DNA of 64,000 nt from Eubacteriales bacterium. GTDB taxonomy: Bacteria; Bacillota; Clostridia; Lachnospirales; Lachnospiraceae. Every line of letters begins with the position of its first letter. The first letter of the stretch is position 1. Below, one piece after another: positions 16,728-33,925 of the stretch. The DNA lies in NCBI GenBank assembly GCA_030537135.1, contig JAUNOP010000009.1, positions 1 through 64,000 on the forward strand, in the 5' to 3' direction. A program made the translations under genes and the position numbers. The notes beneath the pieces are model-generated. The model was not told where the DNA came from. It saw nothing but the letters and a program-made list of their open reading frames with translations, and searched no databases.

Positions 16728-16862
16728 AAAAAGGCATTATAAGAATGAAGGGACTACAGAGAGTCTTTTCTCTGCTGGTTTTGCTTGTTTAGAAAATCCG
16801 CAGAAGAATAAATTACCTCTGTTGCTATTTTATGCCGCTTATGCGGCGGAATGGAGTTATTT

Positions 16863-17756: not shown

Positions 17757-19582
17757 TGAAAGGCGATTTGTTGAAATTCATAACCTGCGGAAGCGTGGAT
17801 GATGGAAAGTCCACTCTCATTGGCCATATGCTTTACGATGCAAAGCTCATCTTTGCAGACCAGAAGAAGGCTCTGGAGCTGGATTCCAAGGTAGGCTCCA
17901 GGGACGGCGGCATTGACTATTCCCTCCTTTTGGACGGTCTTATGGCTGAGCGCGAGCAGGGAATCACCATTGACGTTGCATATCGATATTTTACCACAGA
18001 CAATAGAAGCTTTATTGTTGCAGATACTCCCGGCCACGAGGAATACACCAGAAACATGGCTGTGGGAGCCTCCTTTGCTTCCCTGGCGGTCATTCTTGTA
18101 GACGCCAGCAAGGGTGTGCTTACTCAGACAAGGCGCCATTCCAGAATCTGCTCCCTCATGGGAATCAAACACTTTGTATTTGCTGTAAACAAGATGGATA
18201 TTGTAAATTACAGCCAGTTTCAGTTTGACAAAATCAAGAAGAACATCAAGGTTCTGATGGCAGAATTTGACTACGCCTCCCTGGCAATCATTCCTGTTTC
18301 TGCAACAGAGGGCGATAATATTACAAAGAAGTCAAGCCGCATGTATTGGTATTCCGGCAAAACGCTTCTGGACTATCTGGAAACAGTTGATGTGGAGGAA
18401 GAGGTCTCTGCAAAGGGCTTCTCCATGCCTGTGCAGAGAGTGTGCAGGCCGAACCAGAACTTCCGGGGCTTTCAGGGGCAGATTTCCTCTGGTGAGATTT
18501 CTGTGGGAGATACTGTAACGATTCTTCCAAGCCGTGAGAGCGCAGGCGTTCAGGGCATTCTCGAAGGAGACAAAAAAGTAGAATCCAGCAGCAGAGGCCA
18601 TGCTGTCACGCTCCAGCTCGACAAGGAGGTAGACATCTCCAGAGGCTGTGTCATTGAAAAGGATTATGAGCTTCACACTGCCTCCATGTTTGTAGCCGCT
18701 CTCCTGTGGATGGACGATACCCGGCTGACCTCTGGGCGTAATTTCTGGCTCAAGCTTGGAACCCAGCAGATTCCTGCCACAGTTATGCGGATTAAGCACA
18801 AAATCGACGTAAATACAGGAGCCGAGGTTTACGCTGACACAATTTATAAAAACGAAATCGCCTATTGTGAAATCTCTGTTGGAAGTAAAATAGTGTTTGA
18901 CAGATTTGAAAACAACAGAGAGCTTGGCTCCCTGATCCTGATTGACCGTATCACCAACATGACCTCTGCCTGCGGCGTTGTCATCCATCCGCTCTCCAGA
19001 GGAAAGAGCCTCACCTGGCACAACATGGACATTACCAGAGAGCTCCGCGAAAATCAGCTTGGGCAAAAGGCTCTGACCATCTGGCTGACCGGTCTGTCCG
19101 GAGCTGGAAAATCTACTCTGGCCAATGCACTGGAAAAACGTCTCTTCTCCATGGGCAAGCATACCATGCTGCTTGACGGCGATAACGTGCGTATGGGACT
19201 TAACAAGAACCTGGGCTTTGAGGAAAATGATCGAATCGAAAATCTCCGCAGGATTTCAGAGGTTGCCAAGCTTATGAACGACGCCGGACTCATTGTTCTT
19301 ACCTCCTTTATCTCTCCTTTCCGTCAGGATCGCCGAAACGCAAGAGACATCATCGGAGACCGGTTCGTAGAGGTCTATGTAGCAACTCCTCTGGAGGAAT
19401 GCGAGCGCAGAGACGTTAAGGGACTTTACAGGGAAGCACGGCTTGGCAACATTGCAAACTTTACAGGAATCTCCAGTCCCTATGAGGCGCCGGAGCATCC
19501 GGATATCATCGTAGACACCAGCAAGAACAGCCTGGACGAGTGTGCAGAGCTTGTTATGGAACAGTTGGAGAAATATTTATAA
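17756..19582 (+). CDS. cysNC: Bifunctional ATP sulfurylase GTPase subunit and APS kinase
   Basis: This 608-residue fusion couples APS synthesis to PAPS synthesis. The N-terminal GTPase (about 1-410) has GSVDDGKST (P-loop), DTPGHEEYTRNM (G3) and NKMD (G4), followed by elongation-factor-like beta barrels. The C-terminal APS kinase (about 438-608) has the P-loop GLSGAGKST, DGDNVRMGLNKNLGF, and the lid region with ISPFRQDR. It is translationally coupled to cysD. The fused kinase makes PAPS, the universal sulfate donor, which fits the sulfotransferase two genes downstream. The fusion is known from proteobacteria and Bacteroidetes and is less usual in Firmicutes. The kinase has Met where many have His in the DGDNVRH motif. 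Confidence 0.95.
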   Translation: MKGDLLKFITCGSVDDGKSTLIGHMLYDAKLIFADQKKALELDSKVGSRDGGIDYSLLLDGLMAEREQGITIDVAYRYFTTDNRSFIVADTPGHEEYTRNMAVGASFASLAVILVDASKGVLTQTRRHSRICSLMGIKHFVFAVNKMDIVNYSQFQFDKIKKNIKVLMAEFDYASLAIIPVSATEGDNITKKSSRMYWYSGKTLLDYLETVDVEEEVSAKGFSMPVQRVCRPNQNFRGFQGQISSGEISVGDTVTILPSRESAGVQGILEGDKKVESSSRGHAVTLQLDKEVDISRGCVIEKDYELHTASMFVAALLWMDDTRLTSGRNFWLKLGTQQIPATVMRIKHKIDVNTGAEVYADTIYKNEIAYCEISVGSKIVFDRFENNRELGSLILIDRITNMTSACGVVIHPLSRGKSLTWHNMDITRELRENQLGQKALTIWLTGLSGAGKSTLANALEKRLFSMGKHTMLLDGDNVRMGLNKNLGFEENDRIENLRRISEVAKLMNDAGLIVLTSFISPFRQDRRNARDIIGDRFVEVYVATPLEECERRDVKGLYREARLGNIANFTGISSPYEAPEHPDIIVDTSKNSLDECAELVMEQLEKYL

Positions 19583-19595
19583 ATCGGGTAGCCTG

Positions 19596-20975
19596 ATGAA
19601 AAAATACACGAAATTTTTATTTTCCATGGGAAGGATCGGGTGCATTGGCTTTGGCGGAGGCAGCGCTCTGATTCCGGTTATAGAAAATGAAATTGTAGCA
19701 AAGCAGAAGCTGGATACACAGAAAAACCTGGATAAGGATGTTATCGTAGCCAATATTACCCCTGGCGCCCTTCCAGTGGAAATCGCCGCTTCCATAGGAA
19801 GGAGGAACTTCGGAACAAAGGGAATGGTCACAGGAGCCTTTATGATGGCCTTTCCCGGCGCTCTGGCGTCTATCCTCATCCTCACCATCCTGTCAGCCTT
19901 TCAGGCTCAGGTACTGTCTGTGATAGAGCTTGTTTCTATTCCTGTTTCCTTTTTTATTATCCATCTTCTGATAAGCTATATCACAAAAATGCTTCGCTCC
20001 TGTCAAAAGGAAAGCCTTGACAGGGAGCGAAAAGCCATATTCCTGATGCTTGTGGTATTTCTGATGGTTTGCGGAAAGAATATTTATAGAATCCTGGGAC
20101 TGGATTTTATCCCTGTGCTGGGTCTGTCCACGGTCCAGGTTCTGTGTCTGGCCTTTTTCTGCATTTTTTATTCCAGAAGCATTTACACAAGAAAAACTTT
20201 ATTTGTCATGCTTGCTGTGGGAGGAACCTATCTCCTCAGCCATGGAAGGGCGCAGCTTATTTCCAGTCCTTATCTTGTGCATGGGAGCGAGCTTTTGATG
20301 CTTGCCCTATCCTGCAGAGGAATCTGGCAGAATATTATGGAAACGCATTGGAAGTTTCAGAACAATGGCAGAAAAATCTTAAGAGATACTTTTCCATGGC
20401 TGGTTTTTCTGATAGTTCTGTGCTTTCCCGCAATTCTTGTACACAGAGAAGCTCTCGTATTTATTGGAAAGGGAATTCTCTCTGCGCTGATGTCCTTTGG
20501 AGGGGGCGATGCCTACCTCACCATCGCAGACGGGCTTTTTGTGGAAAGCCATATGGTTACAGAAAAGCAGTACTATGGGCAGATTGTATTTGTAGTAAAC
20601 ATGCTTCCTGGCTCTATTTTGTGCAAAACCCTGACAAGCGTAGGCTATTATATTGGGTTAAATATTGCCGGAAGCCTCACCGGCGCAGTCACTTTGGCTC
20701 TGGCGGGCTTTTCCTGCAGTGTTGCCGCTTCCTGCGGTTTTTTCATGATTATTTATCATTTATACACAAATCTTATTTCCCTGCAGGTTTTCCAGATGAT
20801 AAGCAGATGGATTCGCCCTATCATTGCCGGACTTTTGATGAATATCATGCTTTCTCTGTATCAGCAGTGCCTGACCTCAACCGCGCAGTTCTCCATCTCT
20901 GGATGGGCGATCCTGGCAGGAATCATTTTACTATTAACCTATGAATTTTTATACCATAAGAAGGAGAAGCTATGA
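19596..20975 (+). CDS. CHR-family (ChrA-like) anion transporter, possibly a sulfate importer
   Basis: This 459-residue membrane protein has two CHR (chromate transporter) domains. Each carries the family motif: FGGGSALIPVIENEIV in the N-terminal half and FGGGDAYLTIADGLFV in the C-terminal half, with P-G motifs NITPGALPVEIA and NMLPGSILCKTL. About 10-12 membrane segments are visible. The ATG at 19596 lies 13 bases after cysNC; the upstream ATG at 19542 overlaps cysNC and lacks the family N-terminus. CHR proteins move chromate and, in some cases, sulfate. Placed between PAPS synthesis and a sulfotransferase, sulfate uptake is the more economical guess, but this is inference. Confidence 0.8.
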   Translation: MKKYTKFLFSMGRIGCIGFGGGSALIPVIENEIVAKQKLDTQKNLDKDVIVANITPGALPVEIAASIGRRNFGTKGMVTGAFMMAFPGALASILILTILSAFQAQVLSVIELVSIPVSFFIIHLLISYITKMLRSCQKESLDRERKAIFLMLVVFLMVCGKNIYRILGLDFIPVLGLSTVQVLCLAFFCIFYSRSIYTRKTLFVMLAVGGTYLLSHGRAQLISSPYLVHGSELLMLALSCRGIWQNIMETHWKFQNNGRKILRDTFPWLVFLIVLCFPAILVHREALVFIGKGILSALMSFGGGDAYLTIADGLFVESHMVTEKQYYGQIVFVVNMLPGSILCKTLTSVGYYIGLNIAGSLTGAVTLALAGFSCSVAASCGFFMIIYHLYTNLISLQVFQMISRWIRPIIAGLLMNIMLSLYQQCLTSTAQFSISGWAILAGIILLLTYEFLYHKKEKL

Positions 20976-22144
20976 CAACTGTATATTTGCATATTGGAAC
21001 TGCCAAAACCGGAACAACCTCTATCCAAAATTTCCTTGCAGAAAACAGAATTCTTTTAGAAAAACAGGACTTTTCCTATCCATATATGAATCTTGGACTT
21101 TCTCACCAGGTAGATAAAAGAAATGCGCACTTTCTTGCTTATCTTTCTCCTGAAAAAGATAGGGCAAAGGAAAAAGAGATACGTTCAAAGGGATATGAAT
21201 TTGTCTCCCAGGCCGCCAGGGAGCATTCCAAAGTGATTCTTTCGGATGAACTTATATGGAGCCGTTCTGCAGTAATGAAAAATTTCTGGCCTCAGCTTGC
21301 AGCAAATTTCAAAAGACTTGATTGTAAGGTAAAGGTAATCGTTTATCTGCGCAGACAGGATCAGCTTCTTCAATCATTGTGGAATCAGTATGTAAAGGAT
21401 TTCCGAATAGTTTCTCAGACCTTTCAGGAATATTCCCGGCAAAACGGTCTGAATCGTTATCCATTCGATTATTTTAAACACCTAAATACAATCGCAAAGG
21501 CTGTGGGCAAGGAAAATCTAATTGTGCGTGTGTATGAAAAAAGTCAATTCAAGGACAATAATCTAATATCTGATTTTCTTCAGATAGTGGGCGTGTCTCA
21601 TACAGACGAATTTACCTCAGGTTCCATTCATATCAACCATGGATTGTCCGGAAATTTCATTGAAATGAAACGAATTATAAACAAAGCAAGATGCTATAAG
21701 GATTCTGATAACTTTTTGCAGTATCCGATGCTGTTTGCCAGCGTTCAGCAGCAGGAAACCTCCAAATCCTCAAAAGCCAGCATGTTTACCTACGAAGAAA
21801 CCTTGGAATATCTCCAGCAGTATGAAGAAAGTAATCGAAAGGTAGCTGAGGTATATTTGAATCGACCAGAAGGAGAGCTATTCCGTGACAAAATCGAAGA
21901 CACTCCTGCTTGGCAGCTTGACAGAGACACCTTACATGAGGATATTTTACTCTTTACCACAGAGGCTCTTTTTGCCCAGGAAACTAAAATCAGAGAGCTT
22001 CAAAGCCAGATAAGTGATATGAGGCAGAATATGACAGCCATGAAGCAAGAAATACAGGTTCTGCGCCAAAAGAACACTTCTATGTACAACAGCCTGATTT
22101 TCCGGATATACAGAAAGCTTCGCAGGGTTCTGAAGCACAAATAA
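20972..22144 (+). CDS. PAPS-dependent sulfotransferase with C-terminal coiled coil
   Basis: This 390-residue protein starts with the 5'-phosphosulfate binding loop IGTAKTGTTSIQ (about 8-19) of sulfotransferases. The 3'-phosphate binding region is probably KVIVYLRRQDQLLQSLW. The last 60 residues are a coiled coil (ELQSQISDMRQNMTAMK and on) ending in a basic helix RIYRKLRRVLKHK. Such tails are common on glycan-modifying and glycosyltransferase proteins of polysaccharide loci and may bring the enzyme to the membrane. It overlaps chrA by 4 bases (ATGA) and has AAGGAG upstream, so it is the last gene of the operon. The acceptor is unknown: a cell-surface glycan is most likely, and a small molecule such as a sterol is possible. 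Confidence 0.8.
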   Translation: MTTVYLHIGTAKTGTTSIQNFLAENRILLEKQDFSYPYMNLGLSHQVDKRNAHFLAYLSPEKDRAKEKEIRSKGYEFVSQAAREHSKVILSDELIWSRSAVMKNFWPQLAANFKRLDCKVKVIVYLRRQDQLLQSLWNQYVKDFRIVSQTFQEYSRQNGLNRYPFDYFKHLNTIAKAVGKENLIVRVYEKSQFKDNNLISDFLQIVGVSHTDEFTSGSIHINHGLSGNFIEMKRIINKARCYKDSDNFLQYPMLFASVQQQETSKSSKASMFTYEETLEYLQQYEESNRKVAEVYLNRPEGELFRDKIEDTPAWQLDRDTLHEDILLFTTEALFAQETKIRELQSQISDMRQNMTAMKQEIQVLRQKNTSMYNSLIFRIYRKLRRVLKHK

Positions 22145-23800: not shown

Positions 23801-24835
23801 TTACTCTGGACAAGCCAGAATCCATACCTTCTCTTCACACGCAAAGTCCCTGCTGATTCCCTCTGTCACATAAATTTCTCCCTGCTCTGTGACCAGAATC
23901 ATGTCAAACTCCTCTGCCCTTATCCTCCAATACTCTGCCGCCCTGTCAAGCCCCATGATATAAAGCGAGGTAGAGAGCGCATCTGCAAGCACTCCATCCT
24001 CTGACACAACTGTCACAGAAATCAGATCTCCATCTACCGGATATCCAGTCCTTGGATTCAGGATATGAATGTAGGTATTTCCGTCCTGTTCAAAGTATCT
24101 CTCATATCCTCCAGAGGTTATGACTGCCTTGTTGTCTACTGACAAAACTCCCAGGTTCTGCGTTTTTGAGGTATCTGGATTTCGGATTCCCACTCTCCAC
24201 TTTGAGCCGTCCGGCTTTACATGGAGAGCCTGGACATTTCCTCCAAGAGTCACGATTCCTGAGGCAACTCCCTGCTCCCTGAATATCTCCATCACCCTCG
24301 CAGAGGCATACCCCTTGGCAATTCCTCCAAAATCCAGTTTCTGGTTTTCTCCCAGAGTGACTGTATTTCCATGCACAGACACCTGCCCAGCATCCACCAG
24401 CGGAAGAACCTCCCCAAGCTCCTCCTCTGAGGGTACGTGGTACTCCTTTGACGGGAAGCCCCACAGCTCCATCAGAGGATACACTGTAAAGTCAAACAAG
24501 CCCTCTGTGCTTTCATATATTTCCTGTGCCGCGCCAAGCAGCTCTGCCGTATCCTCAGATATTTCACCGGCGCCATTGGCATTGATTGTGGATATTTCGC
24601 CAGAGGAGCTGCCTGTACTAAGAAGCTCGTCCAGGCGCTTCACCTCTTCCGTGGCAGCGTCCACTGCTCTCTCGCTGTTTGCTCCATAAGCTGTAAACTG
24701 CATAATCGTATCCATGGCAAAGAGTTCCTTTGTGCAGGATGCAGCCTGCTGCTGTGAGCGCTGCTGCAGAATGCAGCCTGCTGCAAGTCCTGCCGCCGTA
24801 AGTCCCAGAAGCGCCAGCAATGGTTTTCTCTCCAT
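23801..24835 (-). CDS. apbE: FAD:protein FMN transferase (lipoprotein)
   Basis: This 344-residue lipoprotein attaches FMN through a phosphodiester bond to Ser/Thr of exported or membrane flavoproteins, using FAD. The signal peptide ends in the lipobox LAAGC (Cys about 21). Family motifs include AMDTIMQFTAYG, LDFGGIAKGYASARV, VTLGGNVQALH, HILNPRTGYPV and DALSTSLYIMG (metal and FAD binding). It is the last gene of the Rnf operon, 3 bases after rnfB. Its clients are very probably here: the RnfD and RnfG parts of the fusion, and the Tat-exported reductase, all of which carry flavinylation motifs. Confidence 0.95.
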   Translation of the reverse strand: MERKPLLALLGLTAAGLAAGCILQQRSQQQAASCTKELFAMDTIMQFTAYGANSERAVDAATEEVKRLDELLSTGSSSGEISTINANGAGEISEDTAELLGAAQEIYESTEGLFDFTVYPLMELWGFPSKEYHVPSEEELGEVLPLVDAGQVSVHGNTVTLGENQKLDFGGIAKGYASARVMEIFREQGVASGIVTLGGNVQALHVKPDGSKWRVGIRNPDTSKTQNLGVLSVDNKAVITSGGYERYFEQDGNTYIHILNPRTGYPVDGDLISVTVVSEDGVLADALSTSLYIMGLDRAAEYWRIRAEEFDMILVTEQGEIYVTEGISRDFACEEKVWILACPE

Positions 24836-24838
24836 AGT

Positions 24839-25627
24839 TTACAGCCTGGTAATAATCTTGGACGGACACTTCTGAGCGCATTTTCCGCAGCCTACACACT
24901 TATCATAGTCAATGTGAGCCAGATTGCCATCCACCTGAATCGCATCATGCTCACACTGCTTTGTGCAAAGCTTGCAGCCAATACAGCCTGCTGTACAGAC
25001 CTTCTTTACCTCTGGCCCTCTGTCATGGTTAGAGCATCTGACAGCTACCTGCTTATCCTCGCGGATGATTTCAATCAGGTGCTTGGGGCAGGCGGCTGCG
25101 CATTGTCCGCAGCCCACACATTTGGTTCTGTCAACCACTGCCACGCCGTTCACCACATGAATCGCATCATAATTGCAGGCCTTTACACAGGAGCCATAGC
25201 CAAGGCATCCATAATCGCACTCCCAGATGGAGATTCCTGCCATCACTGCTGCGCGGCAGTCATTGATTCCCACATAATTGCACTTTTCAGAGGTGCTGCT
25301 GCAGTCGCCCGCACATTTGACAAAGGCTACCTTGCGAATAGCTGCCACTGCCTCAACTCCCATAATCTCGCTGATTTTCTGAATCTTATCCGGTGAATTG
25401 ACCGGACACGCATTTACCAGCGCTTCCTTCTTTACAATGGCGGCAGCCACTGCATCGCAGCCCGCATATCCGCAGGCTCCGCAGTTGTTTCCAGGAAGAT
25501 TTTCTCGAATCAGAGCCTCCCTCTCATCTGTCTCCACATAAAATTTCTTTCCCGTAGCTACCAGAGCAATGCCAATCAGAAGGCCGATTACTCCGACCAC
25601 GATGGTCGCTATTATAATTCCCTGCAT
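24839..25627 (-). CDS. rnfB: Rnf complex subunit B (iron-sulfur protein)
   Basis: This 262-residue subunit starts with one membrane helix (about 3-24). A 4Fe-4S domain with NNCGACGYAGC and CP (about 48-75) follows, then Cys-rich segments including two classical ferredoxin units: CVGCGQCAAACP and, at the C-terminus, CVGCGKCAQKCP. A middle cluster (CTAGCIGCKLCTKQC) adds more. RnfB takes electrons from reduced ferredoxin at the cytoplasmic face and passes them into the complex. It lies 12 bases after rnfA. Its C-terminus is shorter than in Clostridium forms with extra clusters. Confidence 0.95.
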   Translation of the reverse strand: MQGIIIATIVVGVIGLLIGIALVATGKKFYVETDEREALIRENLPGNNCGACGYAGCDAVAAAIVKKEALVNACPVNSPDKIQKISEIMGVEAVAAIRKVAFVKCAGDCSSTSEKCNYVGINDCRAAVMAGISIWECDYGCLGYGSCVKACNYDAIHVVNGVAVVDRTKCVGCGQCAAACPKHLIEIIREDKQVAVRCSNHDRGPEVKKVCTAGCIGCKLCTKQCEHDAIQVDGNLAHIDYDKCVGCGKCAQKCPSKIITRL

Positions 25628-25639
25628 TCTCTCTCCTCC

Positions 25640-26215
25640 TTATGACAGTCCGCCAAATCCCATGAACGCAATTGCCATCAATGACGCACAGAGCAGGACA
25701 ATCGGCGCGCCTCTGAAGGGCGCTGGAATCGCTTCTTCATCAATCCTCTCACGAATACCTGCAAGCAGAACAATCGCAACCGTAAAGCCTATGGCCGTAC
25801 CAAAGCCTGCAAGCACGCTTTCAATAAAGTTATACTCATTCTGCACATTCGTCAGAGCAACGCCGAGTACTGCACAGTTGGTGGTAATCAGGGGAAGGAA
25901 AATTCCAAGTGCCTGATAAATCGCAGGAGCGCTCTTCTTCAGGAACATCTCCACCATCTGAACCAGGGCGGCAATAACCAGAATAAAGACAATCGTTTTC
26001 AGATATGTCAGGTTCAGAGGAACCAGAACAAAATCATACAAAAGGCTTGCCACTGCCGAAGAAATAGTAATAACAAAGATAACCGCTCCTCCAAGGCTTG
26101 CCGATGTCTTAATCTGCTTGGATACTCCCAGGAAGGAGCAAATTCCAAGGAACTGACTGAGTACTACATTATTTACCAGCGCAGTGGTAACCACAATCAT
26201 AATCAAAGACGTCAT
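25640..26215 (-). CDS. rnfA: Rnf complex subunit A
   Basis: This 191-residue integral membrane subunit has six predicted helices. The N-terminal half-helix contains NNVVLSQFLGICSFLGVS, with the Cys that coordinates the membrane [2Fe-2S] cluster shared with RnfE, and the inverted repeat half has TTNCAVLGVAL with the matching Cys. Length is the family norm. It follows rnfE by 3 bases. It forms the electron path through the membrane with RnfE. Confidence 0.95.
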   Translation of the reverse strand: MTSLIMIVVTTALVNNVVLSQFLGICSFLGVSKQIKTSASLGGAVIFVITISSAVASLLYDFVLVPLNLTYLKTIVFILVIAALVQMVEMFLKKSAPAIYQALGIFLPLITTNCAVLGVALTNVQNEYNFIESVLAGFGTAIGFTVAIVLLAGIRERIDEEAIPAPFRGAPIVLLCASLMAIAFMGFGGLS

Positions 26216-26218
26216 TTC

Positions 26219-26890
26219 CTATTCCTCCTTTCCTGTATTACAGGACTTATGGCACTTTGCACAGCAGCCGTCGCAGTCCTCAACCACCTTGTTTGCCCTC
26301 GTCTGAATGCTTGCCGCATTCATGATTGCCACAATAATGGCAAGCACCAGAAAGGCTCCCGGTGCCTTGATAAAGATCGCAATCGGAGTAAAAAACTCCG
26401 GAGCTACCTGAATGCCAAAGGCAGTTCCTGCCCCCAGAAGCTCTCTCACCAGACCGATAATAGTCAGGGCAATCGTAAAGCCAAGTCCCATGCCAAGTCC
26501 GTCAAAAATAGACAGAACCGGCGCATTCTTGGATGCATAGGCCTCTGCACGACCCAGGATAATACAGTTTACAACTATCAGAGGAATATAAATGCCCAGC
26601 GCACTGTACAATGCTGGAATATAGGCCTCTGTTAAAAGCTCTACAATCGTTACAAGAGAAGCAACAATTACAATATAGGCAGGCAGACGCACCTCACCGG
26701 GAATGATTTTTCTCATAAGAGAAATAATCAGGTTCGATACAATCAAAACCGCCATTGTGGAAACTCCCATGCCAAATCCATTGGTTGCAGATGTGGTAAC
26801 TGCCAGCGTAGGACACATACCAAGCATCAGCACAAAGGCGGGATTTTCCTTTATTACACCATTATAAATTCTTTCCAGCCATGGTTTCAT
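26219..26890 (-). CDS. rnfE: Rnf complex subunit E with Cys-rich C-terminal tail
   Basis: This 223-residue membrane subunit is homologous to RnfA, with NPAFVLMLGMCPTLAVT near the start and VVNCIILGRAEAYA later giving the two Cys of the shared iron-sulfur cluster. Six helices fit the family. After the last helix the protein ends with a short tail holding six Cys: DCDGCCAKCHKSCNTGKEE with Cys at spacing CxxCCxxCxxxC. This tail could bind a metal or cluster and is not part of the core fold. It lies between the rnfD-rnfG fusion and rnfA. Confidence 0.95.
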   Translation of the reverse strand: MKPWLERIYNGVIKENPAFVLMLGMCPTLAVTTSATNGFGMGVSTMAVLIVSNLIISLMRKIIPGEVRLPAYIVIVASLVTIVELLTEAYIPALYSALGIYIPLIVVNCIILGRAEAYASKNAPVLSIFDGLGMGLGFTIALTIIGLVRELLGAGTAFGIQVAPEFFTPIAIFIKAPGAFLVLAIIVAIMNAASIQTRANKVVEDCDGCCAKCHKSCNTGKEE

Positions 26891-26903
26891 TCCAATCCCC
26901 TCC

Positions 26904-28442
26904 TTACTTCACATTTGCCGCATAGAAATCAAGAGCAGCATTCACAGCATTGACAACAGCTCCTGAGGACACAGACGCGCCGGATACAGAGTCGATTTCA
27001 TTATCTGCACTGGAGCCGCCGGACTTGTTAAGGATAAATTTGTCCACGTTCACACCTGAGAACTGGCTCTTAAACGCATCCTCCCCACACAGCATACCCA
27101 TACCAGCCGTCTCATTGAGTTCAGTAAAGGAAATGCCATTTATTGTTCCGTCTGCGGAAATACCTACAGACAGGGTAATATTTCCGTCAAAGCCGTCGCC
27201 GCTGGTGGCGCTGATAACATAACCTGCCACATTGCCGGAGGCGTCATTTCCCACTACGATCTCATTAATATAAGCCTTTCCAAAGTCTGTACCATAGACC
27301 TCGCCGCCCAGGGACTCCACAGCTGCGCTGAGTGCATCGTCATAGACAAATTCCTCTGCGCCCGGACAAACCTCACGATAGGAAGCAGCGTTTGCCTCCA
27401 TCTGTCTCTGCTCAATAGTTTCCTTTGTCATCTCAAACACGCCGCTCAGGCAGGCGCCTGCAATCAGGGTGATGATGCACAGGGTAATCGCAGATTTTGG
27501 AATTCCCTTTTTCTCATTGCTCTGGCTTCTGTTCCCATAGGGTACTGGAATCGAAATCTCATCAATCAGCGGAACCAGAAGATTAGAGATAATGATAGCA
27601 TAGCTCACAGAGTCTGCCGCGCTTCCAAATACGCGGAAAAGTCCGCTCAGGATTCCCACTGCTGCTCCAAAAAGGAGCTGTCCTGACGAGGTCACGGGGC
27701 TTGTAACCGGGTCTGTTGCCATGAACAGGGCGCCCATGACAATTCCGCCTCCGCACAGATGCGCAAGGATAAACAGGGGGTCAAATCCCTGTCCGCCAAA
27801 CAAGGCGATAAAGGCAGAGAAGGAAACAAGGGCTGCAACCGGAATCTCAAAGGTGATTCCTCCTACCACCCAGAGGTATAAGCCTCCAAGAGCCAGAGCT
27901 GCGATAGAGCTTCCGATAACACCGTTGCTAAAGCCCAGGAAAATCTCGGAAATATTAATCACCTTTCCTGCGGCCAGATCAACCAATGGCGTTGCCGCGC
28001 TCACTCCGTCCACCTCAAAGCTCGTCACAATTCCGCTGAAGGAGATGAGAAGAAAACATCTTCCTGCAAGAGCAGGGTTCATAAAGTTGTGTCCCAGACC
28101 TCCGAAAAAGCATTTTACCACCAGGATGGCAAACAGGCTTCCTGCAAAGGGTATATAGAGCGGTACGCTCGCCGGAAGGCTCAGCGAGAGCAAAAGCCCT
28201 GTGACCACTGCGCTTCCGTCCCTGGCAGTATTGGGTTTCTTTGCTATATAGTTAAACACAGTCTCAGTCAGCACTGCAGTAGCAATAGAAACCAGAATAA
28301 CCAGAAGAGCATGAATTCCATGGCACCACACGCCCATCACAGACGCCGGAAGCAGCGCCAGAATCACGTCATACATCACGCCTCCGGTTGTCAGCTTGCT
28401 TCTCACATGCGGGCTGGAAGAAACATTGTATAATTTCGTCAT
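26904..28442 (-). CDS. rnfDG: Fused Rnf subunits D and G
   Basis: This 512-residue protein joins two subunits that are normally separate. Residues about 1-305 are RnfD: about eight or nine membrane segments, GHNFMNPALAGR, and the covalent FMN motif DGVSAATPL with Thr about 151. After a linker, residues about 313-512 are RnfG: one membrane segment (SAITLCIITLIAGACLSG), then an FMN-binding domain ending in DSVSGASVSSGAV, with the FMN-bearing Ser about 490. The frame is continuous, so the fusion is not a frameshift artefact of reading. The gene stands where rnfD and rnfG stand in the usual CDGEAB order. One membrane segment keeps the RnfG domain outside, as in separate RnfG. Confidence 0.92.
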   Translation of the reverse strand: MTKLYNVSSSPHVRSKLTTGGVMYDVILALLPASVMGVWCHGIHALLVILVSIATAVLTETVFNYIAKKPNTARDGSAVVTGLLLSLSLPASVPLYIPFAGSLFAILVVKCFFGGLGHNFMNPALAGRCFLLISFSGIVTSFEVDGVSAATPLVDLAAGKVINISEIFLGFSNGVIGSSIAALALGGLYLWVVGGITFEIPVAALVSFSAFIALFGGQGFDPLFILAHLCGGGIVMGALFMATDPVTSPVTSSGQLLFGAAVGILSGLFRVFGSAADSVSYAIIISNLLVPLIDEISIPVPYGNRSQSNEKKGIPKSAITLCIITLIAGACLSGVFEMTKETIEQRQMEANAASYREVCPGAEEFVYDDALSAAVESLGGEVYGTDFGKAYINEIVVGNDASGNVAGYVISATSGDGFDGNITLSVGISADGTINGISFTELNETAGMGMLCGEDAFKSQFSGVNVDKFILNKSGGSSADNEIDSVSGASVSSGAVVNAVNAALDFYAANVK

Positions 28443-28454
28443 TTCTTTTCCCCC

Positions 28455-29789
28455 CTACCTTCTCTTTGCCGCCATAATTTCAGCCTTTGTCTGCTTAAAG
28501 AGCTGCATCAGCGGCCTTTTTGCAGGACACACGTAGGTGCAGGAGCCACAGGCAATGCACTCCAGTCCATACAGCTTCTTCTCATAGCGTTCATAATTCC
28601 TGCGCTCTGCTGCAGCCGCCATCATCTGCGGCGTCAGTCCCAGAGGGCATACCTGATTGCAGCGTCCGCAGCGCAGACAGGCTGTCATCTTCTCATGCGC
28701 CGTCTCCACAGCATCCTCTGTCATCACGGTCAGAGCATTGTTATTTTTGCAGATGGCAGCATTTAAGTTTGCCATGGCAAAACCCATCATCGGACCTCCG
28801 CAGATAAGCTTTTTCACATCTGCGCCTTCCTTTATGCCGCCCGCTGCCTCAAGAACCTCTGAAAACGGAGTCCCTATCTTCACCATCAGGTTGCAGGGAT
28901 TCTTCACCCCATCGCCGGACACGGTAAAGCCTCTCTCCATCAGGGGCTCTGATTTACAGACAGCCCTGTAAATGGCATAAATAGTCGCCACATTATCAAC
29001 CACACAGCCCACATCCGCCGGCAGCATTCCCAGCTTCAGGTGCTTGCCTGCAACTACTGTGATAATCGAGCGCTCACCGCCCTGAGGATACTTGGTATGT
29101 ACGGCATGTACCCGCACCTTTGCCTCACCGCTGCAGGCCTTCTGCATTGCCTCAATAGCCTCCGGCTTGTTTTCCTCTATGAGAATCACGCCCTCTGCAT
29201 TTGGGAAAAGCTTGAGCATGATTTTCATTCCCTCTACAATCTCGGAAGCCTTGCTGCGCATCAGCTGGTCATCGCAGGTAATATATGGCTCACACTCTGC
29301 GCCGTTTGCAATGACATACTGAATCTGGTCTGCATTCTTTGGAGCCAGCTTTACATGGGTAGGAAATCCTGCTCCTCCAAGTCCAATGATTCCGGCTGCC
29401 TTTATCTTTGCCAGAATCTCCTGTCCTGTCAGTTTGTGATAGTCTGTTTCCTGTCCAATCCCCTCTGCCAGCGTGTATTGCCCGTCATTTTCAATAACAA
29501 TGGCCTGCGTAGACGTACCGAGAACGTTGATGCGCTTCTCAATCGCCTTCACCTTGCCAGAGCAGGAGCTGACAATGTTTGCGGATACAAATCCGTCTGC
29601 CTCTGCAATCACCTGACCAGCCAATACCAGGTCGCCCTTTTTTACCACAGGCTTTGCAGGCTTTCCGATATGCTGGTTCAGCTGGAAGATTAAATCCCCC
29701 TTTGGCAGATAGGACTGATAAGAGGCATTTCTTGAATACTCCTTCTGGTCCTTTGGATGTACGCCGCCATGAAATGTTTTTCTGTACAT
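28455..29789 (-). CDS. rnfC: Rnf complex subunit C (NADH-oxidoreducing subunit)
   Basis: This 444-residue peripheral subunit binds FMN and NADH and carries two 4Fe-4S clusters. The N-terminus has the HGGVHPKDQKEYS motif. The FMN/NADH domain has GLGGAGFPTHVKL and NGAECEPYITCDD. Near the C-terminus lie CLRCGRCNQVCP and CIACGSCTYVCP. The ATG at 29789 was chosen because GGAGGG lies 9 bases upstream and the protein then starts with MYRKTFHGG as in the family; a longer frame to 29819 runs into the hairpin upstream. It is the first gene of the Rnf part of the block, 12 bases from rnfDG. Confidence 0.95.
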   Translation of the reverse strand: MYRKTFHGGVHPKDQKEYSRNASYQSYLPKGDLIFQLNQHIGKPAKPVVKKGDLVLAGQVIAEADGFVSANIVSSCSGKVKAIEKRINVLGTSTQAIVIENDGQYTLAEGIGQETDYHKLTGQEILAKIKAAGIIGLGGAGFPTHVKLAPKNADQIQYVIANGAECEPYITCDDQLMRSKASEIVEGMKIMLKLFPNAEGVILIEENKPEAIEAMQKACSGEAKVRVHAVHTKYPQGGERSIITVVAGKHLKLGMLPADVGCVVDNVATIYAIYRAVCKSEPLMERGFTVSGDGVKNPCNLMVKIGTPFSEVLEAAGGIKEGADVKKLICGGPMMGFAMANLNAAICKNNNALTVMTEDAVETAHEKMTACLRCGRCNQVCPLGLTPQMMAAAAERRNYERYEKKLYGLECIACGSCTYVCPAKRPLMQLFKQTKAEIMAAKRR

Positions 29790-29817
29790 ATGGCCTCTTC
29801 CCTCCATTACTATGTTC

Positions 29818-29853
29818 ATAACTATCTGGCAGACCGCGCTGCCAGATAGTTAT
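29818..29853 (-). promoter_or_regulatory. Perfect 15-bp hairpin just upstream of rnfC
   Basis: ATAACTATCTGGCAG (29818-29832) and CTGCCAGATAGTTAT (29839-29853) pair perfectly around a 6-base loop. On the minus strand no U-tract follows; instead the rnfC ribosome binding site comes about 15 bases later. It may be an mRNA processing or stability element, an operator, or a terminator with a poor tail. Confidence 0.6.
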
Positions 29854-29864
29854 GGCGTTTATTT

Positions 29865-30008
29865 GTTACTGTTCACACGGCTACTGTCCCGCGAGGTGTT
29901 TTGGCATGTATATGCCAAAATCCCGAGACATACAAGCCAAAATTCCATTGCTGCAGGCAATCCGGAATGAATTTTGGCCTCGTTGCTGAGAACGGAGTGA
30001 ACAGTAGC
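29865..30008 (-). mobile_element. Family A element, copy A3, between reductase and rnfC genes
   Basis: The ends GTTACTGTTCAC (29865-29876) and GTGAACAGTAGC (29997-30008) define a 144-bp element, in reverse orientation to A1. Both outer thirds match A1, including the TGTCTCGGGATTTT block, while the hairpin arms differ: CCAAAATTC/GAATTTTGG (29937-29945/29969-29977) and TTTTGGCAT/ATGCCAAAA (29899-29907/29912-29920). The flanks share TTTATTT in an imperfect 7 of 8 target repeat. The reductase stop codon is 4 bases from one end. Confidence 0.8.
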
Positions 30009-30012
30009 ACAT

Positions 30013-32043
30013 TTATTTTGCTGCCACGATTTTTGCTGCATGGCGTCCGAATGTCATGGTACGCCCACATGCAAGGCCTGTGAACAGGTTCGGATAAGTA
30101 GTAGCAAACATACCGCCTGTACAGTCGCCTGTTGCATACAGTCCCTCAATCGGCTCTCCATTCACATCCAGAACCTGCATGTCTGTATTGATACGGCAGC
30201 CATTTAAAGTGGTCAAATGCCATGCTCCTGTACGGATTCCAAAGAATGGTGCCTTATCAACAGGAGTCATACGATGCTTCTCCTTGCCATAATCCTCGTC
30301 AATGCCCTTCTTGCACAGCTCATTGTATCTCTCCACTGTTGCAACAAACTCATCAACCGGTATCTGAAGTCCCTCTGCAAGCTCCTCCAATGTGTCTGCC
30401 TTAATTAAGTAGCCCTCATCCACATATTCTGTCATCATCTGCTCCCACACAGAATCAAAGTCACGGTTGCTCGGCGCACCGTTCGGGAACGGGAACAGAC
30501 GGCAGCAGCCTACCTCGTCAAACTGCTCTGCATATTCCTTGCTGTTGGAGTCAAAAATATCACAGTATGTATGATAGGGCTGCATGTACATGGAATGCAG
30601 CATAAACTCATAAGGGCCGGACTCGTTGCAGAAGCGCTTTCCATTCAGGTTTACCTTCAAAAACGGCTGCTCGCCAAACCAGAACCACTTTCCATTTGTC
30701 TTGTAGCCCGCTGTTTCCGTAGGCAGACAGCAGCAGCGGTTAAACATCATGGAGGCATGAGTCGGGTCAATACCTGCCCCTGCCCACATCATGGCCTTTA
30801 TGCCGGAGCCGTCACAGGTAGAGCCCAAAGGACAGTTAATCTTCATTTCCAGAGTCATTGGCTGCAGAGCCTGCATCATCTCTGTGTTCGTAGCATAGCC
30901 GCCGGTACACACAATAACGCCCTTGGAAGCATTTATCTGAATATAATGGTTATCTGTCTGATCCTGTGCGATAATGCCTGTCACCTTGCCGCCCTCGTCC
31001 TGCACCAGCTTTACAAGAGCCGTAGAAAGCTTCCACTCTACGCCAAGCTCATCGCAGTGCGCCTGGAATACCTTTTCTGTGGTAGCGTCCTCTGCCGCCT
31101 TGTCTGTTTTGTTCGGAGAATGTCCGGTAGCATAGCCCTTGTCTCTTCCCGGATCGCTAAGGTCTCCAACTCCGCCCTCATGGTCCATGCGATAGCTTCC
31201 CTCAGCATCAAATATATCGGTAAGCCAGTCTACCATCTCGCCGCTCTCATTGATCCATACCTTGATAAGATCGCTGTCCACATAGCCCGCTCCATAGCGT
31301 ACAAGCTCCTGAAGCGCTTCCATCTTATCAATGGCAAACTCAGGGAACTTCTTCTCTGTTTCCTTCTGAAGCCTGGAGCCGATAGCTCCGATATCGTGGC
31401 GGATTCCTGTTGCTGTCTCTCTCTTCTCCACAACCAGAACCTTAGCTCCCTCCTCAGCAGCGGTCATGGCAGTAATCCAGCCGCCTGTTCCGCAGCCAAC
31501 TACCAGTACCTCTGTGTCAATCGTTTCTGTAATGTCTGCCTCTGCAATCTCCGGGGCAGTGCCAAGCCAGTCAGAGCTTCCTCCTGCCTGGGCTGCTTCA
31601 ACCGTTACACTTTGTCCGCTCGCCTGGGAAATACAGTCTGCTGCAGCCGTTTTGATCGCGTCGCAGGTAATCGTTGCTCCTGAGACAGCGTCTACATTGC
31701 AGGTCTGCGCAGTGATAATCTTGTTTCTCATCTCCTCCACTGCTGCGCCGCCAATGTCAGGAGTCTCGCCTGAAGCGTCGATCTGCACGTCTGTAATCAT
31801 TGTCTCATCAAAGGTCATGGTTACAGTAACGTCGCTGGCAATTCCCTTTGCAGAGGCCGAGTAGGTTCCGGGAGTAAAGGTCAGCCCGCTGCTTGCAGCC
31901 GGAACTGCCGCTGAAGCCGAGTCCTTGCTTCCAGAGCCGACAGAATACTCTATCTTCTGGAGAACACCCAGGGTTGCAAGGCTGGCGGCGCCTGCTGCCA
32001 GACCTTTGATAAAGGTTCTTCTGGAAATTTCATTCTTTGACAT
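30013..32043 (-). CDS. Tat-exported FMN- and FAD-binding reductase (flavocytochrome-c/fumarate-reductase-like, no haem domain)
   Basis: This 676-residue enzyme begins with a twin-arginine signal (SRRTFIKGLAAGAASLATLG, RR at 8-9). An FMN-binding domain (about 54-142) follows, with flavinylation motif DAVSGATIT (T124). The FAD-binding reductase domain (about 175-676) starts with EVLVVGCGTGGWITAMTAAE and ends with GLYATGDCTGG and LFTGLACGRT. Where fumarate and urocanate reductases have the proton-donor and carboxylate Arg motifs (HHTMGG, GANRLGG) this protein has HLTTLNG and ATTYPNLFTG, so the substrate is probably not fumarate. A CCC triplet lies in FNRCCCLP. The tat genes directly upstream and Rnf/ApbE downstream show its export and likely electron supply. 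Confidence 0.88.
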   Translation of the reverse strand: MSKNEISRRTFIKGLAAGAASLATLGVLQKIEYSVGSGSKDSASAAVPAASSGLTFTPGTYSASAKGIASDVTVTMTFDETMITDVQIDASGETPDIGGAAVEEMRNKIITAQTCNVDAVSGATITCDAIKTAAADCISQASGQSVTVEAAQAGGSSDWLGTAPEIAEADITETIDTEVLVVGCGTGGWITAMTAAEEGAKVLVVEKRETATGIRHDIGAIGSRLQKETEKKFPEFAIDKMEALQELVRYGAGYVDSDLIKVWINESGEMVDWLTDIFDAEGSYRMDHEGGVGDLSDPGRDKGYATGHSPNKTDKAAEDATTEKVFQAHCDELGVEWKLSTALVKLVQDEGGKVTGIIAQDQTDNHYIQINASKGVIVCTGGYATNTEMMQALQPMTLEMKINCPLGSTCDGSGIKAMMWAGAGIDPTHASMMFNRCCCLPTETAGYKTNGKWFWFGEQPFLKVNLNGKRFCNESGPYEFMLHSMYMQPYHTYCDIFDSNSKEYAEQFDEVGCCRLFPFPNGAPSNRDFDSVWEQMMTEYVDEGYLIKADTLEELAEGLQIPVDEFVATVERYNELCKKGIDEDYGKEKHRMTPVDKAPFFGIRTGAWHLTTLNGCRINTDMQVLDVNGEPIEGLYATGDCTGGMFATTYPNLFTGLACGRTMTFGRHAAKIVAAK

Positions 32044-32063
32044 TTTCTTCCTTCTTTCTTTTA

Positions 32064-32834
32064 TTATTTTTTCTTTTTCCTTTTCAGTTTCTCACACATT
32101 GAACACAGAACAATGCTGAATTCATACAGCACAATCATTGGTATGGCCACCATAACCTGCGACACTACGTCCGGAGGAGTGATGACTGCGGCTACAAAAA
32201 AGATGACCACAATCACGGCCTTTCTGCCCGCCTTCATCCATTTTACCTTCAAAAGTCCCATCTGCGACAAAAGAACCGATACAATAGGAAGCTCAAAAAC
32301 CAATCCAAAAATCATAAAAATCGTTATGAGAAAGCTTATGTAATTCTGTACGCTGATAGAAGCCTCCACTCCGCTGCCGTTGCTTAAAGAAATAAGAAAC
32401 GAAAGCATAAACGGAAGCATTATCCAATACGCAAAGCAGATTCCTATGCAGAAACAAATAAGACCAAAAATCATTGCAAAAAGAAAAAGCAGATTTTCCC
32501 CCTTTTTAAGACCTGGTTTCACAAAAGCCCACACCTGATAAAACAGCATAGGCAGCGTCACACAGATTCCCATTGTAAGGGAAACAGAAAAATACTGCAA
32601 AAGCAGCTCCTGAGGAGAAATATACACGAAACGATAGCTATAAGCCTTCCCAATATCCAAGAGCAGCGTTACCAGCTGCGGAGCAAAGTTCAGGCTAATT
32701 AACATAGAAGCTGTAAGTAAAATCACGCATACCAGAATCCGGTTGCGCATCTCCCTGAGATGACCGGAAAGCGTCATCTCTTTTCCTGCGTTCTTTTGTC
32801 CTGGCTTCTTCTTAAACGGTCTTATCTTCGGCAT
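32064..32834 (-). CDS. tatC: Sec-independent protein translocase TatC
   Basis: This 256-residue membrane protein with six predicted helices is the twin-arginine signal receptor. The family start SGHLREMRNRILVC (L-x-E-L-R-x-R-like motif) follows a 20-residue basic N-terminus. Typical downstream motifs are PFMLSFLIS and FGLVFELPIV, and the last helices contain AVITPPDVVSQVMVAIPM. It overlaps the tatA gene by 23 bases. Placement directly before a single Tat substrate gene suggests a dedicated system. Confidence 0.93.
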   Translation of the reverse strand: MPKIRPFKKKPGQKNAGKEMTLSGHLREMRNRILVCVILLTASMLISLNFAPQLVTLLLDIGKAYSYRFVYISPQELLLQYFSVSLTMGICVTLPMLFYQVWAFVKPGLKKGENLLFLFAMIFGLICFCIGICFAYWIMLPFMLSFLISLSNGSGVEASISVQNYISFLITIFMIFGLVFELPIVSVLLSQMGLLKVKWMKAGRKAVIVVIFFVAAVITPPDVVSQVMVAIPMIVLYEFSIVLCSMCEKLKRKKKK

Positions 32835-33000
32835 CCTTTGTCACCCTGCCGTCTTCCTTTTCTTCATCCGACGCCATACCATCGCGAAAGCTTTTGACGC
32901 TTTTTCCGAACATTCTGGTAAGCTTGGGAATCTGCGTCGGTCCAAAGATAATCACTACCACGGCCAGAATAATCATTAATTCTGTTGTTCCAATTTTCAT
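32812..33000 (-). CDS. tatA: Twin-arginine translocase subunit TatA
   Basis: This 62-residue protein has one N-terminal membrane helix with the TatA pattern (TTELMIILAVVVIIFGP, then Q-IPKLTRMFGKSVKSF as amphipathic helix) and a short charged tail. It forms the translocation pore with TatC. Its start overlaps the stop of the upstream tatB-like gene by 4 bases and its end overlaps tatC by 23 bases, a tight operon. Confidence 0.9.
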   Translation of the reverse strand: MKIGTTELMIILAVVVIIFGPTQIPKLTRMFGKSVKSFRDGMASDEEKEDGRVTKDAEDKTV

Positions 33001-33449
33001 TCCTGTCCCTCCTTTGCTTTTTCCGGCACATCCTTTCCGGTATTTTCCTCCACAGGCTCAGCCTCTAGAGATTTGTCTCCTGAGAGGTTTGACTCCCTCT
33101 GGCAGGTCTCTGGCTCTTTGTCTGTCTTCTCTCCCTGTGAATTTCCTTTTGAAGAATCCTTTTTTGTTTTTCCGATTCCTGCAAAAGAGCTTTTGACCTC
33201 CTTCACATTGCCTGAAAGCTCCTGATTCAGCTCATTGAGCGGCTCCACAGCCTCTCTCAGCGGCCGCTGCGCTTCCTCCAGAGGCTCCACAATGCATTCT
33301 TTGATATCCTTTGTGGCAGCCTCTGAATACTTCCGAAACTGTGCCAGGGCTTCCCCAAGCTTCCTGGCATACACAGGGAGCTTATCCGGACCTACCACAA
33401 ACAGAGCTACTACAAAAACCACTATCAGCTCTGTAATCCCAATTCTCAT
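32997..33449 (-). CDS. TatA/TatB-family protein with long charged tail
   Basis: This 150-residue protein starts with a TatA/B helix (GITELIVVFVVALFVVGPDKLPVYARKLGEAL). The length and long hydrophilic C-terminal part, with a helical region about 45-90 and a charged disordered end, resemble TatB more than TatA. Most Gram-positive Tat systems lack TatB, so it may be a TatB-like partner or a second TatA. GGAGG precedes the ATG. It is the first gene of the tat-reductase operon, behind a good promoter. Confidence 0.8.
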   Translation of the reverse strand: MRIGITELIVVFVVALFVVGPDKLPVYARKLGEALAQFRKYSEAATKDIKECIVEPLEEAQRPLREAVEPLNELNQELSGNVKEVKSSFAGIGKTKKDSSKGNSQGEKTDKEPETCQRESNLSGDKSLEAEPVEENTGKDVPEKAKEGQE

Positions 33450-33596: not shown

Positions 33597-33625
33597 AGCA
33601 TAAAATATCTGCATTTTTTTGTCAA
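33597..33625 (-). promoter_or_regulatory. Sigma-A promoter of the tat-reductase operon
   Basis: On the minus strand TTGACA (33620-33625), a 17-base spacer and TATGCT (33597-33602) form a strong promoter 148 bases before the first tat gene. An inverted GTAC motif (GTAC at about 33549 and 33560) lies downstream in the leader. Confidence 0.65.
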
Positions 33626-33808: not shown

Positions 33809-33925
33809 ACACGCTTCGCGATGCACAGAAATACCACAAAATACGGCATTTCGCGCCGCTTGTCTCGGGATTTTCGTACCAGAGGAATGAAAACACCTCG
33901 CGGAATAGTCCCCGTGAACAGTAAC
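33809..33925 (+). mobile_element. Family A element, copy A2 (left end missing)
   Basis: The 117-bp segment aligns without gaps to 5595-5711 with about seven mismatches and ends with GTGAACAGTAAC (33914-33925). The left inverted end is not found, so the copy is truncated at its left. The EamA stop codon is 3 bases beyond the right end. Its left hairpin has two mismatched pairs; its right hairpin keeps pairing through a G-T wobble. Confidence 0.8.

What the first reader, a model, noticed from the sequence alone, without database searches (positions are those of the whole stretch)
23801..33449. Self-contained respiratory block: Tat translocase, exported flavin reductase, Rnf and ApbE
Ten genes on one strand encode Rnf, the FMN transferase, an extracytoplasmic reductase with both a Tat signal and an ApbE motif, and a Tat system directly upstream of it. 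This suggests a quinone- and haem-free respiration: ferredoxin or NADH through Rnf to outer FMN groups and then to the reductase. Each part is known; the complete linked set with its own Tat system is the notable point.
Basis: partly seen in the sequence, partly recalled or inferred. Interest (0 to 1): 0.75.

Follow-up and report, generated by a model that had tools for sequence, protein, structure and literature searches.

The report
Rnf pump feeding an exported reductase
Ten neighbouring bacterial genes encode a membrane electron pump (Rnf), a flavin enzyme carrying an export tag, the only export machine for such tags found in this genome, and the enzyme predicted to attach their flavins; together they likely let the cell respire by passing electrons through flavins to a still unknown molecule outside the membrane, and relatives carry the same branch of pump beside other proteins predicted to take electrons outside the cell.

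Summary
The block is real: ten same-strand ORFs, tatB-like, tatA, tatC, Tat-signal flavin reductase, rnfC, fused rnfD-rnfG, rnfE, rnfA, rnfB, apbE. In the 3.07 Mb, 91% complete genome it holds the only TatC, the only Tat signal above cut-off and the only two FMN_bind proteins found; no UbiA-type prenyltransferase or cytochrome c assembly protein was found. tatC-reductase-rnfC stand in this order in 23 of 53 named loci with a reductase relative. Most clade members were chosen through the reductase; of five found by RnfDG alone, four have a partner. Best reading: an Rnf branch that likely exports ferredoxin electrons to exchangeable outside acceptors. The substrate is unknown; fumarate-site residues are replaced (catalytic Arg by Tyr in 120 of 120 close homologues). 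Electron flow is inferred. RnfD-RnfG fusion also occurs outside the clade, mostly without a partner, and 24 of 53 reductase loci have neither tat nor rnf.

The parts
33597..33625 (-). promoter-like site (TTGACA, 17 nt, TATGCT) upstream of the first tat gene
   Evidence: consensus scan, (19 sites found against 14.5 expected, so weak)
32997..33449 (-). tatB-like gene, 150 aa
   Evidence: PF02416 44.5 bits; best NCBIfam TIGR01410 tatB 51.4 bits, cut-off 56.5
32812..33000 (-). tatA, 62 aa, overlaps the tatB-like gene by 4 nt and tatC by 23 nt
   Evidence: PF02416 46.8 bits
32064..32834 (-). tatC, 256 aa; only TatC match in the genome
   Evidence: PF00902 201 bits; 1 match in own genome
30013..32043 (-). 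predicted exported flavin reductase, 676 aa: Tat signal (SRRTFIKG), FMN_bind domain 67-138 with DAVSGAT motif, FAD_binding_2 domain 179-651
   Evidence: model mean pLDDT 81.7; fold nearest urocanate reductase
29867..30006 (.). 140-nt stretch with inverted TACTGTTCAC ends between reductase and rnfC; a second such pair of ends at 5572-5709
   Evidence: 6 end matches with up to 1 mismatch in the window, 2.3 expected
29816..29855 (.). 17-bp palindrome just upstream of the likely rnfC start
28455..29819 (-). rnfC (likely true start 29789, MYRKTF)
   Evidence: TIGR01945 504.5 bits
26904..28442 (-). rnfD-rnfG fusion, 512 aa: RnfD 7-303, RnfG 319-508; FMN motifs SAAT in D and SGAS in G
   Evidence: fused in 25 of 25 relative loci with both parts
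26219..26890 (-). rnfE
   Evidence: TIGR01948 249.9 bits
25640..26215 (-). rnfA
   Evidence: TIGR01943 262.4 bits
24839..25627 (-). rnfB, polyferredoxin subunit
   Evidence: TIGR01944 92.2 bits, cut-off 68.7; Fer4 and FeS domains
23801..24835 (-). apbE, predicted lipoprotein FMN transferase (N-terminus ...LAAGC, read from the sequence)
   Evidence: PF02424 281.8 bits

Best explanation
The block encodes an Rnf complex with RnfD and RnfG fused, an FMN- and FAD-domain reductase bearing a Tat signal, a TatABC set and an ApbE, and it likely works as a short anaerobic respiratory chain in which electrons from ferredoxin would pass through Rnf to its outer FMN, jump to the reductase's FMN domain and reduce an unknown molecule outside the membrane. 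Proposed steps: (1) Tat exports the folded, FAD-loaded reductase (predicted from the signal and from being the only detectable cargo); (2) ApbE links FMN to the last residue of the SGAT, SGAS and SAAT motifs in reductase, RnfG and RnfD (predicted from motif); (3) reduced ferredoxin enters at RnfB, crosses RnfA/E with ion pumping and reaches the FMN of RnfG (published for A. woodii Rnf, inferred here); (4) instead of, or beside, returning through RnfD and RnfC to NAD+, the electron leaves to the reductase FMN (inferred from partner exchange in relatives); (5) FAD reduces a C=C-type bond of a probably uncharged, hydrophobic or aromatic acceptor (inferred from residues). Because pumping in the published model precedes arrival at RnfG's FMN, such an outlet would still conserve energy. 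Across relatives the same Rnf clade would serve other outlets: multi-FMN carriers or NrfA.
For: The only TatC, only above-cut-off Tat signal and only two FMN_bind proteins found in the genome are in this block. tatC-reductase-rnfC in order in 23 of 53 named loci, linked in another order in 2 more (L038, L058). TatC over cut-off in 46 of 50 genomes with the reductase (in G234 the only match has a stop inside) against 8 of 200 genera of the window's family, own included. RnfD-RnfG one frame in 25 of 25 loci. Rnf tree: clade of 40 (support 1.0), 39 with a predicted-exported redox neighbour; other clade 1 of 31. Loci chosen only by RnfDG similarity (L077-L081): 4 of 5 have a partner, none of them this reductase. 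In 7 genomes whose reductase relative lies on another contig, the slot between tatC and rnfC holds a carrier with 4-7 FMN motifs; Pfam on two of them shows no FAD domain. In L016 carrier and reductase stand together between tatC and rnfC. Domains typed as carrier match the reductase's FMN domain (51 of 52, median 48% identity), hardly RnfG's (4). No UbiA and no Cytochrom_C_asm match in own genome.
Against: No biochemistry, expression data or complex model. 24 of 53 reductase loci have neither tat nor rnf beside them; 4 of 50 reductase genomes show no TatC and 4 no RnfD match (many are MAGs). RnfC is intact, so ordinary ferredoxin:NAD+ work is probably retained. The 39 of 40 is inflated by choice: 35 of the 40 tips come from genomes picked through the reductase or are the window. 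Fusion alone is no mark: 10 fused loci of the family lie outside the clade and only 1 of them (L084) has a partner. L080, inside the clade, has none. The inserted stretch and palindrome between reductase and rnfC could split the transcript in this genome. The substrate is unknown, so the direction, reduction or oxidation, is not proven.
Confidence: 0.62

Rival explanations
1. Rnf here is the ordinary housekeeping ferredoxin:NAD+ pump, and the reductase takes electrons elsewhere (free flavins, another dehydrogenase); the genes share a neighbourhood only because both need ApbE.
For: RnfD was matched in 179 of 200 genera of the family, RnfC is intact, and the reductase is unlinked in 24 of 53 loci.
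Against: A shared need for ApbE does not explain the Tat genes, the clade-specific partner association (39 of 40 against 1 of 31), or NrfA-type proteins, which need no ApbE, beside three members of the clade. No other FMN_bind protein was found in the genome to act as donor.
Confidence: 0.22
2. The exported enzyme runs as a dehydrogenase: it oxidises an outside compound and feeds electrons into Rnf, which uses the ion gradient to reduce ferredoxin.
For: The catalytic Arg is replaced by Tyr, and structural neighbours include 3-ketosteroid and cyclohexanone dehydrogenases; Rnf is reversible.
Against: Sister operons carry NrfA-type proteins, normally reductases; the nearest fold is urocanate reductase; such dehydrogenations usually have potentials too high to feed ferredoxin (recalled).
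Confidence: 0.08
3. A non-respiratory electron sink or detoxification: the outside reduction happens but conserves no energy.
For: Nothing in the calls measures energy conservation.
Against: The donor complex is an ion pump; in the published model pumping comes before the electron reaches RnfG's outer FMN (PMC11889175, passages).
Confidence: 0.08

Closest known systems
Flavinylated extracytosolic fumarate-reductase-like enzymes (Listeria FrdA, Shewanella UrdA; PMC8238504, passages)
   Same: Exported FAD_binding_2 enzyme with an ApbE-flavinylated FMN domain or motif that receives electrons from the membrane.
   Different: In the passages read the electron source is encoded elsewhere (through quinones or cytochromes, recalled); here the enzyme sits in an Rnf operon with Tat genes, and its aligned active-site residues differ.
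Rnf of Methanosarcina acetivorans with the multihaem cytochrome MmcA (PMC12174285, passages; PMC6703419, listing only)
   Same: An Rnf with an extra redox protein, expected to pass electrons to methanophenazine or outside acceptors.
   Different: Partner is a cytochrome; no flavin reductase or Tat set, and no RnfD-RnfG fusion in the passages read.
Rnf clusters with multi-flavinylated RnfG (PMC8238504, passages)
   Same: Proposed second electron route from Rnf to outside acceptors by flavin domains.
   Different: There the extra FMN domains are on RnfG; here they are on a separate protein related to the reductase, and RnfG is fused to RnfD.
Cargo-linked Tat systems (Bacillus tatC loci with phoD or ywbN; PMC3827258, passages)
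   Same: tat genes beside the gene of the protein they export.
   Different: There two TatC isoforms share the work and the cargo is not a respiratory enzyme (recalled); here it is the only Tat set found and the cargo is a respiratory-type enzyme.

Membership tests
Rnf complex | subunits A, B, C, D, E, G present | tested here: met
   TIGR01943, 01944, 01945, 01946, 01948 over cut-off; RnfG part 97.4 bits, just under cut-off 102, in a fusion
Rnf complex | FMN attachment motifs in RnfD and RnfG | tested here: met
   DGVSAATPL in D, SVSGASV in G
Rnf complex | ion-coupled ferredoxin:NAD+ activity | not testable with these tools
   needs biochemistry
Tat translocase | TatC plus TatA/TatB-type proteins | tested here: met
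   PF00902 and two PF02416 over cut-off; the TatB label itself is just under its NCBIfam cut-off
Tat cargo | twin-arginine signal | tested here: met
   27.8 bits over cut-off 22.7 in the genome search, 22.0 just under it in the protein scan; R8 in 115 and R9 in 112 of the 120 closest homologues, 5 gaps each, 3 K at 9
Flavinylated fumarate-reductase-like oxidoreductases | PF00890 plus FMN_bind with [ST]GA[ST]-like motif and export signal | tested here: met
   DAVSGAT; T124 in 120 of 120 closest homologues, while position 121 is S 100, T 11, A 9
Fumarate reductase (Fcc3 type) or urocanate reductase | catalytic Arg (R402 of Fcc3) and residues Q363, H365, H504, H505, R544 (numbers 504 and 544 recalled) | tested here: not met
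   Profile alignment places Y478, M432, F434, L610, T611, L653 there (fixed by the R402Y chain 1jrz); each 120 of 120
Vinyl phenol reductase VprA (NF053717) | score over curated cut-off 600 | tested here: not met
   207.6 bits
ApbE FMN transferase | ApbE domain | tested here: met
   PF02424 281.8 bits, cut-off 25.6
Dedicated single-cargo Tat | no other Tat substrate in the genome | tested here: inconclusive
   one signal over cut-off, but the model is short and about 9% of the genome is missing

The most novel reading that the evidence does not exclude
A distinct branch of Rnf, in which RnfD is always fused to RnfG, has become an electron-export pump: it drives ion pumping by sending ferredoxin electrons not to NAD+ but out of the cell, through a swappable outlet (a Tat-exported flavin reductase, a chain of up to seven FMN domains, or pentahaem nitrite reductase), giving quinone-free respiration in bacteria classed as fermenters.
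Probability: 0.42. Interest if true: 0.85.

Novelty: new variant of a known kind. Interest (0 to 1): 0.68.

Why it matters
If true, some bacteria treated as pure fermenters would have an energy-conserving respiration that needs neither quinones nor, in this genome, cytochromes c, with a pump that accepts different outside electron sinks. It would give a sequence mark (this Rnf clade beside an exported redox protein) to predict such respiration from genomes, and a small, defined system in which to test whether electrons can leave Rnf on the outer side.

Tried and rejected
Fumarate or urocanate as acceptor: rejected on the aligned residues, though the overall fold is nearest urocanate reductase. 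Six paralogues at 30-37% identity vary at these places (Y478: F, Y, G, G, Y, F). Vinyl phenol reductase: best NCBIfam name but far under cut-off; the paper search on it (listing only) did not fix the substrate.

Substrate from neighbours: of 23 loci put in (the 24 without tat or rnf minus L028, L051 and L054, plus L038 and L052), shared neighbour families other than the reductase occur in at most 7 loci.

Fusion as the mark of export: dropped in favour of the clade. First count, 6 of 13 fused against 0 of 20 unfused loci. On checking I found four more rows with frames long enough to be fused; fetched, three are fused and none of the four has a partner, so it is 6 of 16 against 0 of 21. All four fall outside the clade.

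Idea that Tat cargo number grows with the FMN number of the carrier: dropped. G224, G225, G227 have 36-39 Tat signals but G220 and G231, with like carriers, 3 and 6; FAD_binding_2 matches there are 5-12; 8 of 10 scanned Tat proteins from them (10 of 15 fetched) are solute-binding proteins.

A minus-strand terminator between reductase and rnfC: the 17-bp palindrome has its T-rich tail on the plus strand.

P values (0.0034 fused against unfused, 8e-5 for the clade within the family; 9e-38 for TatC with the reductase) treat related loci as independent; guides only.

Literature: the rows listed by the searches (titles and abstract starts; many hits beyond the rows shown) held no paper that I could recognise as on an RnfD-RnfG fusion, NrfA beside Rnf, or a Tat-reductase-Rnf operon. 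Passages only were read of PMC8238504, PMC11334425, PMC10339131, PMC12174285, PMC12718326, PMC4014512, PMC12934955, PMC11889175, PMC3827258. Little et al. 2024 is not held. This is no proof of absence from print.
Full report
WHAT IS THERE. Ten ORFs on the minus strand run from 33449 to 23801: a 150-aa TatB-like protein, a 62-aa TatA, TatC, a 676-aa reductase, RnfC, a 512-aa protein made of RnfD and RnfG, RnfE, RnfA, RnfB and ApbE. Pfam and NCBIfam agree. The reductase has a Tat signal, an FMN_bind domain with the ApbE-type motif DAVSGAT, and an FAD_binding_2 domain. A terminator-like hairpin at 33693-33678 and a promoter-like site at 33625-33597 precede tatB, though such sites are only modestly above chance.

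THE GENOME. It is 3.07 Mb in 103 contigs and 91% complete. It has one TatC match, this one; one Tat signal over the Pfam cut-off, the reductase (four further matches of 10.8-14 bits are in short frames of 15-64 aa); and two FMN_bind proteins, RnfDG and the reductase. It gave no match for UbiA-type prenyltransferases, which all 14 control genomes have, and none for the cytochrome c assembly family, found in 9 of 14 controls. So no quinone or cytochrome c route was found, within the limits of completeness. Other haem proteins were not searched.

CONSERVATION. A scan of species genomes with the reductase gave 53 loci at 54-86% identity in the best segment, titled Lachnospiraceae, Oscillospiraceae, Oscillibacter, Clostridiales and others, the 54% one being Slackia. 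In 23, tatC, reductase and rnfC stand in this order (tatB lies beyond the contig in L018 and L021, the rnf end is cut in L016 and L021, L060 shows no rnfB, and L011, L016, L022, L024 and L053 have a further reductase or carrier ORF between). In L058 and L038 all three parts are linked in another order or orientation; L032 and L061 have reductase and rnf without local tatC (L061 is cut); L041 and L052 have tat and reductase without rnf; 24 have neither (my count). There, at E 1e-50 and with at most five candidates scored per genome, only the own genome gave a close relative of the reductase; G154 gave two at 30-33%. The seven other TatC loci of that family lie beside other twin-arginine proteins in five cases: metallo-beta-lactamase-fold proteins (L062-L064) or an Fe-S protein (L067, L068). 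Tat in this family thus looks like an accessory that travels with its cargo. It is not so everywhere: of 30 genomes scanned, three have 36-39 Tat signals, mostly solute-binding proteins in a sample of ten.

THE RNF BRANCH. RnfD and RnfG are one frame in 25 of 25 loci with both, and in 42 of the 46 reductase genomes with an RnfD match the best match crosses the junction in one frame; G232 and G238 have them separate, and G212 and G242 show RnfD only (my count). A neighbour with an FMN domain beyond RnfG, a reductase-type FAD domain or three or more CxxCH motifs was present in 6 of these 16 fused loci and in 0 of 21 unfused ones, 20 of which I took at steps down the list. Several fused contigs are short (L080, L082, L088, L124), so partners may be missed. 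A tree of five Rnf subunits (71 loci, 1407 columns, FastTree, midpoint root) splits them into a clade of 40, support 1.0, and 31 others. In the clade, D and G are fused in all 39 where both are seen (L021 is cut), and 39 of 40 have a predicted-exported redox neighbour; in the rest, 10 of 31 are fused and 1 of 31 (L084) has a neighbour. Most clade members were chosen through the reductase, so the fair figure is the five found only through RnfDG (L077-L081): 4 of 5, namely one FMN_bind protein and three NrfA-type proteins with one CxxCK and four CxxCH (Pfam on L078 and L079; L081 is 54-59% identical to them), with ResB and CcsA-type genes shown by Pfam for L078. The window's Rnf groups with the NrfA-linked L078 (support 1.0). 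So fusion alone is not the mark; the clade is.

THE SWAPPABLE SLOT. In L069-L075, from seven genomes whose reductase relative is on another contig, the place between tatC and rnfC holds a protein with 4-7 FMN motifs; Pfam on L069 and L072 and the reductase profile on all seven show no FAD domain. Its N-terminus matches the reductase's signal, with SRTT in place of SRRT, so the twin arginine is lost and it may stay as a membrane anchor (inference). Domains typed as carrier resemble the reductase's FMN domain (median 48%), hardly RnfG's. L016 has carrier and reductase side by side between tatC and rnfC, and L011 also has an extra FMN-domain ORF there. A simple reading is that the FMN domain is the plug that meets Rnf and that the catalytic part can be attached, duplicated (tandem reductases in L022, L024, L053) or moved elsewhere. 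Two genomes, G228 and G233, show neither TatC nor RnfD, and their reductases read SRKD; but L050 has SRKT with TatC beside it, and two other TatC-less genomes, G217 and G221, keep SRR, so this is only suggestive.

HOW IT MOST LIKELY WORKS. In the published A. woodii Rnf the electron from ferredoxin crosses RnfA/E, is coupled there to Na+ release, and reaches the outer FMN of RnfG before returning through RnfD and RnfC (PMC11889175, passages). An outlet at RnfG's FMN would therefore keep the pumping step. I infer that the reductase, or a carrier, takes the electron there. RnfC is intact, so the NAD+ branch probably remains as well. No call shows electron flow.

KNOWN AND NEW. Flavinylated exported reductases, Rnf with extra outside partners, and tat genes beside their cargo are each known (PMC8238504, PMC12174285, PMC3827258; passages read). 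What I did not see in the rows and passages read is the Tat-reductase-Rnf operon, the clade-wide RnfD-RnfG fusion, and its link to exchangeable outside acceptors. I call it a new variant of a known kind.

Noticed in passing
29867-30006 and 5572-5709 (one more end at 33914-33923): Two stretches of about 140 nt with inverted TACTGTTCAC ends, perhaps a small mobile repeat (insides not compared); one sits between reductase and rnfC, where the gap is 223 nt against 11-96 nt in 24 of 25 relatives.
   Followed up: partly
L078, L079, L081: Rnf operons of the same clade beside a pentahaem NrfA-type protein, with ResB and CcsA-type haem-attachment genes in L078: a possible Rnf-to-nitrite route.
   Followed up: partly
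G224, G225, G227 (loci L109-L123): Genomes with 36-39 Tat signals, where 8 of 10 scanned Tat proteins are solute-binding proteins, usually Sec cargo (recalled).
   Followed up: partly
L067, L068: TatC beside a twin-arginine Fe-S protein, an aldehyde:ferredoxin-oxidoreductase-like enzyme (Pfam for L067; L068 by look) and, in L068, an FMN-domain protein: another Tat-linked redox set.
   Followed up: no
L062, L063, L064: TatC beside large twin-arginine metallo-beta-lactamase-fold proteins, with a cadherin-like domain in L062 and L064.
   Followed up: no
G224, G225, G226, G227, G234, G248: A TatC-like match over positions 4-135 with one TAA inside, beside a full TatC elsewhere in all but G234: probably a decayed copy.
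   Followed up: no
window 16851-19582 and 19542-22144: cysD- and cysNC-like sulfate activation genes followed by a chromate-transporter-like and a sulfotransferase-like protein (read from the translations; no family search).
   Followed up: no
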